A DNA stretch of 64,000 bases from Rubrivivax sp. (GTDB lineage: Bacteria > Pseudomonadota > Gammaproteobacteria > Burkholderiales > Burkholderiaceae_C): contig JAHCKS010000010.1 of the NCBI GenBank assembly GCA_026125665.1, positions 1 through 64,000 of the forward strand, written 5' to 3'. Each line of letters opens with the position of its first letter. Position 1 is the stretch's first letter. Below the pieces are notes generated by a model. That model made no database searches. It was not told the origin of the DNA and was given only the letters and a program-made list of their open reading frames with translations. Made by a program: the position numbers and the translations under genes. Of this stretch, positions 52,811-59,844 are shown piece after piece.

Positions 52811-52906
52811 GCGGGGCGGACCGCGGCGCGCCCCGGTTGTGTGCATCGCGAGTCCTGCATTACCCTGCGCAGCGCCGCGCGGCGGCGAGAACAACAGGGA
52901 GGGAGG

Positions 52907-54508
52907 ATGGCCACCAACGCGATCGACGGTCTGCCGACCTACGGCGCCGTCTATGTCGTCTCCGACCTGCACCTCGGCGGCTTCGAGGAGGAGCGCGGAC
53001 GCAACTACCGCATCTTCCGCGCCAGGGAGGCGCGCGCGCTGGAGTGGCTGATCGACCAGGGGCTGGCGAAGGAGAGCGTCAGTGGCCGCCGTTGCCTGGT
53101 GCTCAACGGCGACATCGTCGACTTCCTGGCTCACCGCACGCCACGCTACTTCGACTGGGCGCACGCGGTGGACAAGCTGAACGACGCGATCGGCGACAAG
53201 GAACAGGCCATCGTCTGGCAGGCGCTGCGCCGTTTCGTCACCGAGGACATCGGCGACCTCGTGATCGTGCTCGGCAACCACGACGTCGAGCTGGCCCTGC
53301 CCGAGCCGCAGCAGGTGCTGCTGCACTATCTCACCCAGGGCCGGCTCGACCTGCGCGGCCGCATCCACTTCGCGCTCGACGGCGCCGGTTTCGCCTGCCG
53401 CGTGGCCGGCCCGGGCGGCGGCAAACGCGTGCTGTGCCTGCACGGCAACGAGGCCGACCCCTGGAACGCGATCGACTACGGGCGGCTGTCGCTCATTCGC
53501 CGGGCGCTGGCCCGCGGCAGCATGGATCGCAACGCCCTGGTGCTCGACAACTGGATCCCCAACGCCGGCACCCAGCTCGTCATCGAGTACCTCAACGGCC
53601 AGAAGCGCAAGTACCAGTGGATCGACCTCCTCAAGCCCGAGGAGGAGGCCGTCGGGATGATCACCGCGGCCCTGTGCAACCTGCCGGCAGTGCGCACGTT
53701 CGCCGAGACGATGGCCCAGCAGTCGCGCACCAGGAAGCAGCTGGCCGACGGCTTCATGGCCGGCACGCACGTGCAACCCTCGACCGCCGCGGACGCCGCC
53801 GCGGCGGTTGCCGTGGCCGACCCGCCGCTGCCCGTGCCGACGGCCGTGGCCCGCGCCATCGACGCGCTGGGCAGCGGCCAGACCCCCGAGGACCTGGTGC
53901 GCGAGCCGGACGACGCGTACCTGATGGGCAAGATCGAGCTCGCCGCGCGCACGTTGCAGCTCAAGGCCTGGCCGAGCTCGCTGCGCGAGGTGCTGGCCTC
54001 GACGCTCGCCGACGACCGCAGCTTCGAGTTCAGCGAGACCGACGCCACGTTCCGCGAGCTCGACAACCTGGTGGGCCCCGACCCGGACTTCCTCGTCGCC
54101 GGCCACACGCACCTGCACCGCGCCTGCGAACGCAAGCGCTTCCCCGGCAAGTACTACTTCAACTCGGGCACCTGGATCCAGATCCTGTCGATCCCGAAGG
54201 AACTGCTGGCACCCGATCTCTACCCGTTCCTCAAGGAGCGCCTGGAGGACGGCAGCATCGACAGGCTCGAGCAGGCGATCCACACGCCGCGCGGCGAGTT
54301 CTCGCTGCTGCGCACGCGGCGCACCGTCGTCTGCATTGCGCCCGGCGCCGGCGGCACGGTGCGAGGCGAGCTGCGCACGGTCGAAGAGGCCGCCGTCCCC
54401 GCCAAGGGCACGGCCGCGGCGGGCAGGAAGGCGGGCGCGACGCCGGCCGGCTGGAAGCTCGTCCCCGTCGGCGGCTCCACCTTCCCTTCCGAAGGAGGTG
54501 CCGAGTGA
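52907..54508 (+). CDS. Calcineurin-like metallophosphoesterase
   Basis: A 533-residue phosphoesterase with all five metal-binding blocks: VVSDLHLGG (Asp20, His22), LVLNGDIVDFL (Asp69), VLGNHDVEL (Asn125-His126), VLCLHGNEADPW (His179) and VAGHTHLHRACE (His400/402). A helical insertion of about 200 residues separates the last two. The nearest known fold is UDP-diacylglucosamine-hydrolase-like, but the insert and C-terminal extension are different. The ATG at 52907 follows GGGAGG. Its TGA overlaps the GTG of the CHAT protease gene, so the two proteins are made together, a layout suggesting a partner or effector-regulator pair. Confidence 0.9.
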   Translation: MATNAIDGLPTYGAVYVVSDLHLGGFEEERGRNYRIFRAREARALEWLIDQGLAKESVSGRRCLVLNGDIVDFLAHRTPRYFDWAHAVDKLNDAIGDKEQAIVWQALRRFVTEDIGDLVIVLGNHDVELALPEPQQVLLHYLTQGRLDLRGRIHFALDGAGFACRVAGPGGGKRVLCLHGNEADPWNAIDYGRLSLIRRALARGSMDRNALVLDNWIPNAGTQLVIEYLNGQKRKYQWIDLLKPEEEAVGMITAALCNLPAVRTFAETMAQQSRTRKQLADGFMAGTHVQPSTAADAAAAVAVADPPLPVPTAVARAIDALGSGQTPEDLVREPDDAYLMGKIELAARTLQLKAWPSSLREVLASTLADDRSFEFSETDATFRELDNLVGPDPDFLVAGHTHLHRACERKRFPGKYYFNSGTWIQILSIPKELLAPDLYPFLKERLEDGSIDRLEQAIHTPRGEFSLLRTRRTVVCIAPGAGGTVRGELRTVEEAAVPAKGTAAAGRKAGATPAGWKLVPVGGSTFPSEGGAE

Positions 54509-56652
54509 GCACGATCGCGCCGCGCAAGGTGAGCCTGCGCTTCCTGCGCGAGGGGCCCACGCACAACCATCTGCTGTCGCCGCTGACGCCCTATCTCGCC
54601 ACCGTCGGCCGCAACGACGCCGTGACGGTGCGCATGCCCTACGAACACCGTCGGCTGCTGCGCGACCTGGCGGCGCTTCGCTACGGCGCGGACGCCACGC
54701 AAGGGCCCGACGCAGCACGCATCAAGGCGCCGGAGCGCCGCCTGATCGCCGACGACGTGAGCGCGATCTTCGAGTCCATTCCGGGCCTCGGCGCCGAGAT
54801 CGGGACAGCGCAGGCGTGCCACCCGGGCCTGGTCCACCTCGAGCTGGTGTTCTCGGCGGCCGAGCTGTCGATGCTGCCCTTCGAGCTGGCCACCTCGCCG
54901 CGCGGCTTCCCCGGCGAAGGCTTGCCGCTCTCGGTGCAGGTGAGCACGCCGATCACGATCACGCGCAGCGTGCCCTCGGCGCCCGGGCGGGACCGCAAGT
55001 GGAACCTGAGGCCGCGCATCCTCTTCGCCTGGGCCTCTCCCCCCGGGCTGCCGCGGGTGCCGCACGAGGCACACCTGGCGGCGCTGGTCAAGGCGCTGCA
55101 GGCCTGGACCGGGCCGCTGCACGAACTGCCCGGCGGCGACGCCGATCGCGCCGCCGCGCTGGGCCGGTACCTCGTCGTGCTGCCCCAGGCCACGCGCCGC
55201 CAGATCGAACGGCTCTGCCGCGAAGACACCTTCACGCATGTGCACCTGCTCGCCCATGGCGCCACGGTGGACGATGCGGCCGAAGCGCAATACGCGCTGG
55301 CCCTGCACGCGGCGGGCGGCCGCGGCACCGAACTGGTGGGCGCCGAGCGGCTGCAGGCGGCGCTGCGCCTGCCGCTCGAGCGCAGCGCCGGCGAGAGAAG
55401 CCTGTCGCATCCGCTGGTCGTGAGCCTGGCCACGTGCGACTCGGGCAACCTGTCGCAGGTGGTGACGCCGGGCATGAGCCTGGCGCACGCCATCCATGCC
55501 GCCGGCGTGCCGCTGGTGGTGGGGTCGCTCTTCCCGATCACCTATGGCGGCTCCGTCGCGCTGGCCGAGGGCCTCTACGAAGGCCTGCTCGGTGGCAAGG
55601 ACCCGCGCTGGGTCCTGTACGAGACGCGGCACCGGCTGTTCCGACGCGACGAGCGCACCCATGACTGGGCGAGCATGGTCGCCTACGCCTCCCTTCCCGA
55701 CGACATCGGCGACCAGGCGACCGACGTCCGATACCTCGCCGCCTGCGATCTGATCGATGCGCGCATCCGGCTGGCCACCTTGCTGGCGAGGCGGCTCGAA
55801 CGACCGGGCGCGGGCTCCGAGGGCGGCGCGACCGCAGCGGGTGAACATCTGGCCAGCTTCGATGCGCAGGACAAGGCGATCCGCGACGCCGAGAGCAAGC
55901 TTCCCGACCAGCGGGCCTACCTCATCGAAGGCCACGGCATGCGCGCCAGTGCCGAGAAGAAGAGGTCACGTGTGCTGTTCGATGCAGCCATGGCACTGTC
56001 GCCGGCCGGCTCCCCGACACCCGGGCCAGGGCGTGCCGCCGCGCGGCCGAGGCAGAGCAGCCCGGGTGAAAGTGCCGCGCAGGCCAGCCTCCTCCAACGC
56101 TCCGTCGAGGCGTTGCGCAACGCCCAGGGCATCTACCGGCGCACGGCGCAGATCCCGCCGTGGGTGGTGCAGCGCCCCGTCATCGGTCCGGAGATGCTGC
56201 CCACGCAGCACTGGGTGCTGACGCAGGCGCTCAGCCTCGAGTTCGTGCTGCACCGGACGATGGACGTGACCGACTGGCATGCGGCGGTGAGCAACGCGCA
56301 GATGCTGTTGTCCAGCGGCGAAGTGCTCGCGGGCACGGGCACGTCCGGTGAGGCGGGCGACCCGATCTGGGCGCACGGCTCGTTGATCGAGCTGCACCTG
56401 CTGGCCCATGGGCTCGGGCTGGTGGCGCACGCCGATGCGAAGGCCCGCCAGCATCTCAAGGCCTTCATCGACGCCACTCGCCACAGCCCCGTGCCCTTCT
56501 TCCGCAGCTCCACCATCGCCCAGCTCAAGCGCTACACGGAGTGGTGGTTCGACCCCGCGTTTGCGCGGGCCTGCGGACTGCCGAGCGAAGACAAGAAGGC
56601 GCGCCTGGTCCGGGCGCTCGCCGGCGAGTTGATCGAGTCACTGCAGGCGTAG
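54505..56652 (+). CDS. CHAT-domain (caspase-like) protease
   Basis: A 715-residue protein. After an N-terminal domain of about 170 residues the CHAT core carries the catalytic dyad His251 in VHLLAHGATVDD and Cys311 in VVSLATCDSGNL, followed by SLAHAIHAAGVPLVVGSLFP, the substrate-pocket region typical of CHAT. The remainder (about 430-715) is mostly helical and may be a TPR-like sensor. GTG at 54505 has GAAGGAGGTG upstream and overlaps the metallophosphoesterase stop (GTGA). CHAT proteases act in several bacterial defence and cell-death systems; that role here is inference. Confidence 0.9.
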   Translation: MSTIAPRKVSLRFLREGPTHNHLLSPLTPYLATVGRNDAVTVRMPYEHRRLLRDLAALRYGADATQGPDAARIKAPERRLIADDVSAIFESIPGLGAEIGTAQACHPGLVHLELVFSAAELSMLPFELATSPRGFPGEGLPLSVQVSTPITITRSVPSAPGRDRKWNLRPRILFAWASPPGLPRVPHEAHLAALVKALQAWTGPLHELPGGDADRAAALGRYLVVLPQATRRQIERLCREDTFTHVHLLAHGATVDDAAEAQYALALHAAGGRGTELVGAERLQAALRLPLERSAGERSLSHPLVVSLATCDSGNLSQVVTPGMSLAHAIHAAGVPLVVGSLFPITYGGSVALAEGLYEGLLGGKDPRWVLYETRHRLFRRDERTHDWASMVAYASLPDDIGDQATDVRYLAACDLIDARIRLATLLARRLERPGAGSEGGATAAGEHLASFDAQDKAIRDAESKLPDQRAYLIEGHGMRASAEKKRSRVLFDAAMALSPAGSPTPGPGRAAARPRQSSPGESAAQASLLQRSVEALRNAQGIYRRTAQIPPWVVQRPVIGPEMLPTQHWVLTQALSLEFVLHRTMDVTDWHAAVSNAQMLLSSGEVLAGTGTSGEAGDPIWAHGSLIELHLLAHGLGLVAHADAKARQHLKAFIDATRHSPVPFFRSSTIAQLKRYTEWWFDPAFARACGLPSEDKKARLVRALAGELIESLQA

Positions 56653-57889: not shown

Positions 57890-58239
57890 GGTCACATCGG
57901 CGCTCGGGCTGCAGCAGATCGACGAACTCGGCGGCGTCCCGCTTCTCCACCCCGAGGCGGATCATCAACTCTGGCCGACCCGAAGAACGCCGCCTCCGAC
58001 CATGCTGCACTCTGGGTTGACCTCGGTCTAACGGTCTAACAGCTCGCCCAGCCTCCCAACTGCGATGGTCCAGCGCTACACGCATCTCGCCGCCGACCAC
58101 CTGGTGCCTTGGGCCGAGCGGCTGACGACGCGGCGTGCAGACCGCGGCACGAATCCGTCACATCAGACGGAAAGCGACAGCGACCCAACGACCTGCGCGC
58201 GCTCGCATCGCGCAAGTCGTTGTGATCAAAGAGGAAACC
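57890..58239. other. Gene-poor stretch left of the attachment core
   Basis: No complete gene. It contains an integrase tail (listed separately) and otherwise scrambled sequence, consistent with a decayed element end. Confidence 0.5.
58041..58139 (+). pseudogene. C-terminal remnant of a tyrosine recombinase
   Basis: Around the ATG at 58065 the frame reads SLPTAMVQRYTHLAADHLVP then WAERL, the standard end of tyrosine integrases including the catalytic Tyr (QRYTH). Upstream the frame is broken by a stop at 58029 and no integrase core is found. The tail points towards the tRNA-Lys core 100 bp away, the usual integrase/att arrangement, so it is the residue of an older element. Confidence 0.65.
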
Positions 58240-58290
58240 TGGTGGGCCCTGTAGGATTCGAACCTACGACCAACGGATTAAGAGTCCGTC
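58240..58290 (-). repeat. Attachment core: 3' half of tRNA-Lys (anticodon CTT)
   Basis: On the minus strand these 51 bases give the anticodon arm (stem ACGGA/TCCGT, loop CTCTTAA), variable region, T arm (GTAGG-TTCGAAT-CCTAC), acceptor 3' strand and CCA of tRNA-Lys(CTT). The sequence beyond 58290 does not match a tRNA D arm or 5' acceptor strand, so this is a 3' fragment, as left by site-specific integration into a tRNA gene. Confidence 0.85.
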
Positions 58291-58454
58291 CAACCGTCGA
58301 AGGGGTCGCAGAGTTCAGATCGGCTGAGACTGCTTGCATACCCCACGTGCGAAATTGTGCCCGTTCTCGCGGGATGCCGTCAAAGTGCCGTGACGCCGTC
58401 CGCATTCGCACCCCTCCAAGTGGAGGTGGCACGACCGTCACAGTCTGAGGCAGG

Positions 58455-59423
58455 CTACAAGGCGCCCAGTGCGTCGCGCATCGCTTGCAGGTCCGGGTGC
58501 ACGTAGCCGTAGGTCGTGGATATCGACGTATGCCCGAGTTGTTGCTGAACAACCTTTAGGTTCGGGACTGCATTTGCGAGGATTGTGGCCGTCGTGTGCC
58601 GAATGCGGTGAGCGCTCAGCCTCGGCATGGAGCTTGGCACGTGAGCACGCAGGCGCCGGAAGAAGCTGTCGAGGTTGTGTGTCCTCATCTCGCGGGTGAC
58701 GAACACGGTCGGGCGCACGCTGAACAGTGGCAGGCAGAACACCTGCCTGCCGGAAAGCTCGGGCCCGACGACGTGCCGCGTGTGCTGTCTGAGACGCTCC
58801 AAGTCCGGCGTCAGTGCCGTTGGCAGTGGAATGCGCCACTCCCGGCGGGTCTTGCTCGTCTCCGATCGCAGGCAGATCGTTTGCTCGTCAAACGAGACAT
58901 CGTTCCAACGCAGTCCGAGGAGCTGTCGCTTGCGCATCCCGGTCAGGTAGAAGGTTCGCAGCACAGCGAGCCAGAACCACTGCGGCGGGATGACTTCGAC
59001 GAGGCGACCTTTGGAATCGCAGCGCCGCTCCGACTCCAGGAATGACAGGAAGGCAAGCATCTCCTTCTTGCTCACGGCTTTGGGGCCAGCCTGCGGTGTG
59101 GGGATGGAAGGCACGTCGCGATACGGGTTGCGCTCCATGCACCCTTGGCGGCAGGCGAAGTTGAACAGCGTCGAGAGGTGCCGCCGCTCGGTGTTGACGC
59201 TGGTGGGTCTCATCCTGCGTCGGCAATCGTCTCGGAAAGAGATCAGGACATCGGCTGTGATCAGCTGAAGCGCCACGGCCTCGGAACATGCTCCTGGGCC
59301 GAGCAAGTGACGGGCAAGATTTGTCGCGCACAGCCGGTAGCGCTTGCAGGTCTCGGGGGCAAGTACCTTGAAACGAAGGTACTCGTCGCAAAGCCTGCCC
59401 AACGTTCGTATGGCCGAGCTCAT
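58455..59423 (-). CDS. Tyrosine recombinase/integrase of the element
   Basis: A 322-residue XerC/D-like recombinase. The N-terminal SAM-like domain starts GRLCDEYLRFKVLAPETCKR; the catalytic domain has Arg164 in TGMRKRQLLGLRW, the His-x-x-Arg motif AHRIRHTTAT (272-275), His298 in QQLGHTSIS, and the nucleophilic Tyr at 307 (TTYGYVHP). All five catalytic positions look intact. It is transcribed toward the tRNA-Lys core 165 bp away. The ATG at 59423 is chosen; the frame stays open upstream with some protein-like character, so a longer N-terminus is possible. Confidence 0.9.
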   Translation of the reverse strand: MSSAIRTLGRLCDEYLRFKVLAPETCKRYRLCATNLARHLLGPGACSEAVALQLITADVLISFRDDCRRRMRPTSVNTERRHLSTLFNFACRQGCMERNPYRDVPSIPTPQAGPKAVSKKEMLAFLSFLESERRCDSKGRLVEVIPPQWFWLAVLRTFYLTGMRKRQLLGLRWNDVSFDEQTICLRSETSKTRREWRIPLPTALTPDLERLRQHTRHVVGPELSGRQVFCLPLFSVRPTVFVTREMRTHNLDSFFRRLRAHVPSSMPRLSAHRIRHTTATILANAVPNLKVVQQQLGHTSISTTYGYVHPDLQAMRDALGAL

Positions 59424-59844
59424 TGGCCGGCACCTCCCAAAGGCGCGGATATCGGCGGAAGGGACGCCAAACTCAAGGGCGCGGACGACTGTTCTTGAGG
59501 CGCGACCTGCATGGGCGAGGCAGTGTGCACGCTTGACGATGCGGCGCCAAGCCATCCACTCTTTGCGAGAGCGGCGGGACCCAGGAGTTGCAGAGCCCGC
59601 TCCGGCGAATATCAGACAACGAAGGACGAGCAAGCGAGGCCCGCCACAGCGGAACGCCCGGCCCGTCATAGGCATCCCAAAGTCGTGGTCACCACCGATG
59701 CCACCGATGGACTGGGAGGAGCAATGCACGGCTGTTCACCGGCAAGGGCGCGGTCGTTCTTGTGGCCGGCGCGTCGATCGCATCTGAAGCGCAATGCCAA
59801 CTCGGCGCGGCCTCGCAAAGCGCGGAGGCGGCTGCCAACGTCCG
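59424..59844. other. Gene-free stretch upstream of the integrase
   Basis: About 420 bp up to the IS5 target duplication. It should carry the integrase promoter. The minus-strand frame continuing from the integrase is open to 59729, but I cannot show that it is translated. No other gene, RNA or repeat is apparent. Confidence 0.4.

What the first reader, a model, noticed from the sequence alone, without database searches (positions are those of the whole stretch)
52907..56652. Metallophosphoesterase translationally coupled to a CHAT caspase-like protease
The phosphoesterase stop and the CHAT start share bases (GTGA), so the proteins are made in fixed ratio. Both active sites look complete (five metal blocks; His251/Cys311). 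CHAT proteases are known effectors in several bacterial immune or suicide systems, and nucleotide- or lipid-cleaving phosphoesterases act as partners or second-messenger controls. A two-gene module next to a toxin-antitoxin operon and an att site has the look of an undescribed defence or cell-death unit. The phosphoesterase has a roughly 200-residue insert that could be the substrate- or partner-binding part.
Basis: partly seen in the sequence, partly recalled or inferred. Interest (0 to 1): 0.78.

Follow-up and report, generated by a model that had tools for sequence, protein, structure and literature searches.

The report
Phosphoesterase paired with CHAT protease
Two neighbouring bacterial genes, a metal-dependent phosphoesterase and a caspase-like protease, travel together between distant bacteria and resemble known immune pairs in which a protease switches on a DNA-cutting enzyme, but with a different kind of cutter.

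Summary
A calcineurin-like metallophosphoesterase (MPE, 52907-54508) overlaps by GTGA a CHAT protease gene (54505-56652); both active sites are intact. The pair is a real, mobile unit. Of 80 CHAT relatives kept, 73 have the MPE just upstream on the same strand. The two gene trees mirror each other (r = 0.944, n = 72). In 398 sampled genomes the 3 with a strong MPE are the 3 with a strong CHAT.

Key lead: in one clade (5 of 80) the same CHAT family lacks the MPE and is fused to a metallo-beta-lactamase domain; the three tested match LmuA, RTasMBL and Avs1a. Tuck et al. 2025 showed that MBL nucleases of such systems are activated by partner proteases. I therefore propose a CHAT-activated MPE effector in an immune or cell-death module: a new variant of nuclease-protease pairs.

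Not shown: cleavage of the MPE, its substrate, phage defence, enrichment near defence genes. Against: in one gammaproteobacterial clade the pair ends a six-gene lipid-enzyme cluster, and in two genomes a divergent MPE without CHAT takes that place.

The parts
52897..52906 (+). purine-rich stretch as ribosome-binding site of the MPE gene
   Evidence: read directly; function inferred
52907..54508 (+). calcineurin-like metallophosphoesterase gene (MPE), 533 aa
   Evidence: PF00149, 2.1e-8; homologues upstream of CHAT in 73 of 80 loci
53462..54091 (+). insert of the MPE between metal blocks IV (H179) and V (H400), residues 186-395: conserved part with W..NAG and DLLKPE, then a variable part
54492..54499 (+). 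AAGGAGGT, Shine-Dalgarno-like site of the CHAT gene inside the end of the MPE gene
   Evidence: read directly; function inferred
54505..54508 (+). GTGA overlap: CHAT start codon and MPE stop codon
54505..56652 (+). CHAT-domain protease gene, 715 aa: conserved N-terminal block (GP.HN.LLSPLT.Y), CHAT domain (107-394), C-terminal extension ending in a conserved Q..RY block
   Evidence: (PF12770, 1.6e-21)
55255..55257 (+). codon of catalytic His251 of CHAT
   Evidence: 88 of 88 aligned
55435..55437 (+). codon of catalytic Cys311 of CHAT
   Evidence: 88 of 88 aligned

Best explanation
The two genes are one horizontally exchanged conflict (immune or cell-death) module. The CHAT protein is the conserved hub. 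Its N-terminal block and C-terminal extension are proposed to hold or sense a trigger (inferred). When triggered, the protease cuts its co-made partner, the MPE, in the insert that lies between metal blocks IV and V, and so frees the two-metal active site (inferred). The freed phosphoesterase then destroys a phosphodiester substrate, most likely nucleic acid or nucleotides, and stops the infected cell (inferred). In a sister clade the same CHAT family is fused to an MBL domain of the kind found as LmuA, Avs1a and RTasMBL, so the MPE looks like a non-homologous replacement of that effector. Shown here: pairing, co-inheritance, intact sites, partner swaps. Not shown: cleavage, substrate, trigger, defence.
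For: MPE just upstream of CHAT on the same strand in 73 of 80 loci; 74 of 81 measured pairs lie within -8 to +18 nt, 19 of them at -4. The same 8 plasmid records of 72,556 hold both genes. In 398 genomes strong MPE and strong CHAT coincide, 3 and 3, adjacent. Mirror-tree r = 0.944 against a maximum of 0.157 in 1000 shuffles, n = 72. Phylum changes 19 on both trees, shuffled mean 26, least possible 6. Partner swaps on the CHAT tree: an MBL clade of 5 with support 100, and one subtilase (PF00082, 8.7e-39). MBL halves of the three tested match LmuA (1.6e-70 to 2.7e-63), RTasMBL and Avs1a. Tuck et al. (PMC12799240, abstract and Results read) showed gated MBL nucleases activated by trypsin-like or caspase partners. 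ThsA (7e-202) and ThsB (1.1e-52) models match genes beside the pair in G400.
Against: No sharply conserved cleavage site was found in the variable part of the MPE insert; it keeps spaced leucines, so it may be a folded cap and not a loose gate. In one gammaproteobacterial clade the pair ends a six-gene cluster with an alpha/beta-hydrolase, an acetoacetate decarboxylase-like gene, a patatin and a GMC oxidoreductase, and in G856 and G864 that cassette carries a divergent MPE and no CHAT. Some pairs sit beside housekeeping genes. Enrichment near defence genes was not shown: TIR_2 2 of 118 near, 2 of 135 control. The window's MPE matches no PADLOC model beyond E 0.022, and its CHAT only SAVED_CHAT, over the CHAT part. 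A distant MPE (L129) has no CHAT partner: its neighbour gave no CHAT match. At least two copies look damaged: L010 (frame broken) and L095 (in-frame stop). No relative of CHAT in viral contigs or phages, which neither supports nor refutes.
Confidence: 0.47

Rival explanations
1. The MPE is the switch and CHAT the effector: the MPE breaks down a nucleotide signal that would otherwise activate CHAT, limiting the response, as ring nucleases limit type III CRISPR effectors.
For: Calcineurin-superfamily domains are predicted as nucleotide phosphodiesterases in conflict systems (PMC7159879, passages). TPR-S/MAP3K_TRAF_bd, TIR-like and SLATT-like genes lie near some pairs.
Against: No nucleotide sensor domain (SAVED, CARF) was matched in CHAT outside the protease part. 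It does not explain why an MBL of the LmuA/Avs1a kind or a subtilase takes the MPE's place.
Confidence: 0.2
2. The pair works in lipid or envelope metabolism: the MPE is a lipid phosphoesterase (LpxH-like; resemblance recalled) and CHAT a processing or quality-control protease.
For: Complete cassette alpha/beta-hydrolase, ADC-like, patatin, GMC upstream on the same strand in 8 of 80 loci (L027, L033, L040, L043, L045, L047, L053, L085), GMC alone in the short contig L048, and an inverted cassette near the pair in L060. Divergent MPE without CHAT in the cassette of G856 and G864. Patatin-like genes near CHAT-MBL genes in G227.
Against: On the tree the eight loci lie in one clade of ten; its member L031 shows no cassette. 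The other loci, and the window, lack it. It does not explain the MBL and subtilase swaps.
Confidence: 0.22
3. MPE and CHAT are two independent effectors under common control, with no action of one on the other.
For: They are separate genes in the loci examined (the apparent fusion in L023 is an artefact); no cleavage site could be recognised.
Against: Very tight spacing and strongly mirrored trees.
Confidence: 0.11

Closest known systems
Nuclease-protease pairs of Hachiman (HamM), AVAST (Avs1a), Lamassu, DRT and canu (CanA/CanC), Tuck et al. 2025, PMC12799240
   Same: Adjacent genes for a metal-dependent hydrolase and a protease, patchy and horizontally moved; a sister clade of this CHAT family carries an MBL domain, which in the three tested matches LmuA, RTasMBL and Avs1a.
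   Different: In the window the hydrolase is calcineurin-like and not MBL, the protease is CHAT and not trypsin-like or the CanA caspase; no fused sensor or conserved cleavage residue was identified. The main text of that paper has no occurrence of CHAT, calcineurin or phosphoesterase; its supplements were not seen.
CHAT proteases of CRISPR systems: Csx29 (TPR-CHAT) and SAVED-CHAT of type III (names from listings and from PADLOC)
   Same: CHAT domain with His/Cys dyad; PADLOC SAVED_CHAT matches residues 223-395.
   Different: No SAVED domain was matched; the partner is an MPE. Neighbouring CRISPR genes were not searched for specifically.
Conflict systems with calcineurin-superfamily effector domains (Kaur et al. 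2020, PMC7159879; 2021, PMC8195603)
   Same: Calcineurin-like domains listed as effector domains beside caspase, TIR and others (passages).
   Different: In the passages seen they belong to STAND, TRADD-N, vWA-MoxR and GTPase-centred systems; a two-gene MPE-CHAT unit is not in those passages.
Borvo (CHAT protein)
   Same: CHAT domain (PMC10952713, one passage).
   Different: Here a two-gene unit; no PADLOC model other than SAVED_CHAT matched the window's CHAT at E up to 1. That PADLOC holds a Borvo model is recalled, not checked.

Membership tests
CHAT peptidases (PF12770) | profile match above the curated cut-off | tested here: met
   77.5 bits against 24
CHAT peptidases (PF12770) | His/Cys catalytic dyad | tested here: met
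   H251 and C311 in 88 of 88 aligned; that these are the catalytic pair is recalled from the family
Calcineurin-like phosphoesterases (PF00149) | profile match and metal-binding blocks | tested here: met
   35.3 bits against 21.5; eight residues complete in 76 of 78
Nuclease-protease pairs (Tuck et al.) | metallohydrolase and protease in adjacent genes | tested here: met
   73 of 80 loci
Nuclease-protease pairs (Tuck et al.) | hydrolase of the MBL superfamily | tested here: not met
   the window's is PF00149; MBL only in the sister clade, 5 of 80
Nuclease-protease pairs (Tuck et al.) | gating insert with a conserved cleavage residue | tested here: inconclusive
   insert present and partly variable; no cleavage residue recognised; structure prediction off
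Nuclease-protease pairs (Tuck et al.) | protease-dependent hydrolase activity and phage defence | not testable with these tools
   needs biochemistry and phage assays
SAVED-CHAT / CRISPR effectors | SAVED domain in the CHAT protein | tested here: not met
   PADLOC match covers profile positions 127-267 of 498; no Pfam domain but CHAT at E up to 1
LpxH-type lipid phosphoesterases | match to a curated model of that activity | tested here: not met
   no NCBIfam model above its cut-off, best E 0.024; no convincing PDB match with the profile; activity untested

The most novel reading that the evidence does not exclude
An undescribed, widespread two-gene immune module in which a CHAT protease activates a calcineurin-like pro-phosphoesterase, showing that protease-gated effectors evolved more than once: the same protease family drives either an MBL of the LmuA/Avs1a kind or an unrelated MPE.
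Probability: 0.43. Interest if true: 0.78.

Novelty: new variant of a known kind. Interest (0 to 1): 0.61.

Why it matters
It would show that protease-activated effectors in bacterial immunity are not limited to MBL nucleases: one protease family has swapped its metallohydrolase for a different fold. It also gives a ready set of named pairs (Azotobacter, Shewanella, Paraburkholderia, Adhaeribacter, Desulfoluna and others) for a direct test.

Tried and rejected
Fusion of MPE and CHAT in L023: suggested, rejected because a stop codon lies between the two; the long frame was an artefact of my script.

CHAT next to the distant MPE of G569 (L129): I first read the N-terminus of the overlapping 1135-aa protein as CHAT. 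Tests do not bear this out: no Pfam match for its first 420 residues at E up to 10, a score below zero with a profile of the 87 CHAT rows, while a divergent CHAT (L014) scored 304 bits, no BLAST hit, no PADLOC CHAT. It is a P-loop (GIGKT, weak STAND/NB-ARC matches) and TPR protein.

Enrichment near PADLOC families: 118 of 265 near genes matched 227 models, 135 of 243 control genes matched 56. One protein hits many models, members are not counted, two genes (L025:1-408, L098:18495-19892) are in both sets, and 18 of the 118 'near' genes lie more than 3 kb away because my gene caller skipped nearer ones. I draw no conclusion. Pfam TIR_2 was 2 of 118 near and 2 of 135 control; TPR-S 4 of 118 near and not among the 25 families shown for the control.

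PDB relatives: no convincing match for MPE or CHAT, single sequences or profiles. The delta-crystallin match of the MPE profile (E 0.021) I take as chance.

Viral contigs and phages: no relative of CHAT found (one search used exact peptide patterns from one sequence).

An att-site repeat within the contig: none of 15 bp or more for 58151-58480, so I could not place the pair inside or outside an element.

Placement of the window's CHAT next to L046 in the tree is not reliable: the tool flagged long branches meeting.

Bias of the sample: the 80 loci are the best 80 of 149 relatives found with a six-row alignment, four of whose rows came from MPE-bearing loci, so 73 of 80 leans towards the window's own type. 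Of the other seven, L082 has too little sequence upstream to judge. For alignments I dropped three short MPEs (L034, L084, L095), and for the trees near-copies L008-L012 and L095 and L081.

Papers: PMC12799240, abstract and Results read and a term search; PMC8195603, PMC7159879, PMC12419801, PMC10952713, passages only; others in search listings only. In the listings of searches I saw no title or abstract start on an MPE-CHAT unit; some listings were capped, papers outside that library were not searched, and supplements were not read.
Full report
What is there. The window carries an MPE gene at 52907-54508 and a CHAT gene at 54505-56652, both on the + strand, sharing GTGA. Pfam finds PF00149 in the first and PF12770 in the second and nothing else at E up to 1. 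CHAT has its own AAGGAGGT five bases before its GTG (read). Coupled translation is plausible, but a fixed ratio is not implied.

Is it more than chance? Yes. A scan of genome contigs with a six-row CHAT alignment gave 149 relatives, of which the best 80 were kept. In 73 of these 80 an MPE homologue lies just upstream on the same strand. In 81 measured pairs (those 73, the window and 7 plasmid copies) 74 have a spacing of -8 to +18 nt and 19 of exactly -4; the other seven are L010, L020, L022, L023, L025, L080 and L092 (start codons chosen by alignment, so single values may shift, and the L023 value is an artefact). In the plasmid collection 8 of 72,556 records hold a CHAT match and the same 8 hold an MPE match: seven Paraburkholderia replicons and one 37.6 kb Methylobacterium plasmid. 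One of these eight, L010, has a broken frame. In 398 genomes of the phylum the matches over 300 bits are 3 for the MPE profile and 3 for the CHAT profile, in the same three genomes and adjacent. The weaker matches, 6 genomes for MPE and 11 for CHAT, are listed in those calls; G639 is in both lists, at different contigs. In 300 genomes of the order, strong MPE matches are in the window's genome, G400 and G465, both of the latter with CHAT adjacent; a fourth, G391, is weak and its locus L103 shows no CHAT.

The pair is accessory and mobile. In 250 genomes of its family 4 have any CHAT match, counting its own, and one of these (G098) is weak. The MPE and CHAT trees of 72 common loci correlate at r = 0.944 against a maximum of 0.157 in 1000 shuffles, and both need 19 changes of phylum, where 6 would be the least and shuffles average 26. 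The two genes have thus moved together between phyla. The window's own nearest neighbour in the tree is uncertain (long branches meet).

Active sites. Eight metal-site residues are complete in 76 of 78 aligned MPEs, and H251/C311 in 88 of 88 aligned CHAT proteins. The MPE insert between H179 and H400 has an almost invariant part (W..NAG...DLLKPE) and a following stretch of 124-160 residues with lower conservation (0.43 against 0.58) but several near-invariant leucines.

Partner swaps. Seven of the 80 loci have no MPE. In five (L069, L087, L093, L097, L099) the CHAT reading frame runs on into an MBL domain, and on the tree these are one clade with support 100 (Pfam's Lactamase_B is over its cut-off in L097 and just under it in L087 and L093). 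The MBL halves of the three scanned (L069, L087, L099) match PADLOC LmuA (E 1.6e-70 to 2.7e-63), RTasMBL and Avs1a. One (L059) has a subtilase gene directly before CHAT. One (L082) is cut off upstream. In the family sample, G133 also shows a CHAT-MBL frame; G227 holds the L087 locus again and a second, divergent CHAT preceded by genes that I read as MBL and patatin.

Why this matters for mechanism. Tuck et al. (PMC12799240; abstract and Results read) showed that MBL nucleases of Hachiman and AVAST are gated pro-enzymes cut open by partner proteases, and that a caspase complex activates the MBL nuclease in canu. The CHAT family here joins, in one clade, with an MBL of the Lamassu/AVAST/DRT kind. 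The simplest reading is that the MPE holds the same slot in the other clades. That is inference from partner exchange, not a biochemical result.

Further context. In G400 two genes with ThsB_TIR matches, one ThsA gene and a HET-domain gene follow the pair on the same strand. A TPR-S/MAP3K_TRAF_bd gene follows CHAT in 6 of 80 loci; an RyR-type gene adjoins CHAT in 7 of 80, one of them on the other strand (Pfam confirmation for L060 and L065, and for L030 and L073). These are suggestive; a proper enrichment test was not achieved. A distant MPE in G569 (106 bits) overlaps by 4 bp a P-loop and TPR protein, and a 41% relative in G620 follows the end of a like protein. I had first read CHAT into that protein; the tests say no.

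Evidence the other way. In eight loci of four gammaproteobacterial genera (Azotobacter, Methylobacter, Shewanella, Rheinheimera) the pair closes a same-strand cluster of an alpha/beta-hydrolase, an ADC-like gene, a patatin and a GMC oxidoreductase (the hydrolase is under its Pfam cut-off). L048 shows only the GMC because its contig begins there, L060 has the cassette inverted nearby, and L031, a Methylobacter of the same clade, shows none. In G856 and G864 the cassette carries a divergent MPE and no CHAT. In 197 genomes of that order the ADC-like gene is strong in 3: these two and G1035, whose contig has the length of the Shewanella contig of L033 and carries the pair; two further matches are weak. 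So in this clade the MPE may serve lipid chemistry. Some other pairs sit beside housekeeping genes, for instance thymidylate kinase and RNase E/G genes by Pfam, as a mobile insertion also would.

Surroundings in the window. Left lie tautomerase and MmgE/PrpD genes. Right lie a PemK-like gene, a 49-bp stretch identical to a place on another contig (within the ARAGORN tRNA-Lys call), an integrase, two transposases and, further on, a conjugative element with F-type TraC. I could not show that the pair belongs to that element.

Verdict. Observation confirmed; interpretation partly supported. The pair is a real, conserved, horizontally moved unit, best read as a new variant of nuclease-protease pairs with an MPE in place of the MBL.

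Noticed in passing
window 58240-58308 and 58455-59729: The ARAGORN tRNA-Lys may be a tRNA remnant: 49 bp match another contig (C112) exactly, with two near copies there. It lies near a phage-type integrase, two transposases and a conjugative element (TraC) reaching into the rest of the contig, with genes near its end that I read as mercury resistance.
   Followed up: partly
L045 2999-8332 and seven like loci: Conserved alpha/beta-hydrolase, ADC-like, patatin and GMC oxidoreductase cassette upstream of MPE-CHAT in gammaproteobacteria; in G856 and G864 it carries a divergent MPE and no CHAT.
   Followed up: partly
L129 63-4846; L128 2255-4143: A distant MPE overlaps by 4 bp a gene for a P-loop and TPR protein whose N-terminal 420 residues match no Pfam family; a like arrangement is seen at a contig end in G620.
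   Followed up: partly
L059 8812-9996: Subtilase gene in the place of the MPE directly before CHAT in Telluribacter.
   Followed up: partly
L006 9186-14084: On the Methylobacterium plasmid beside the pair: genes for a D12 adenine methyltransferase, a second calcineurin-like phosphoesterase (weak wHTH-Calcineurin_assc match) and two unknown proteins in a row.
   Followed up: partly
L137 24-3999: A truncated MPE relative in G639 lies next to genes that look like a Vsr endonuclease, a HerA-type ATPase and a NurA-like protein (my reading, no family search).
   Followed up: no
L030, L038, L051, L052, L055, L062, L073, next to CHAT: Small RyR-type gene directly after CHAT, on the other strand in L073; Pfam checked for L030 and L073 only.
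   Followed up: partly
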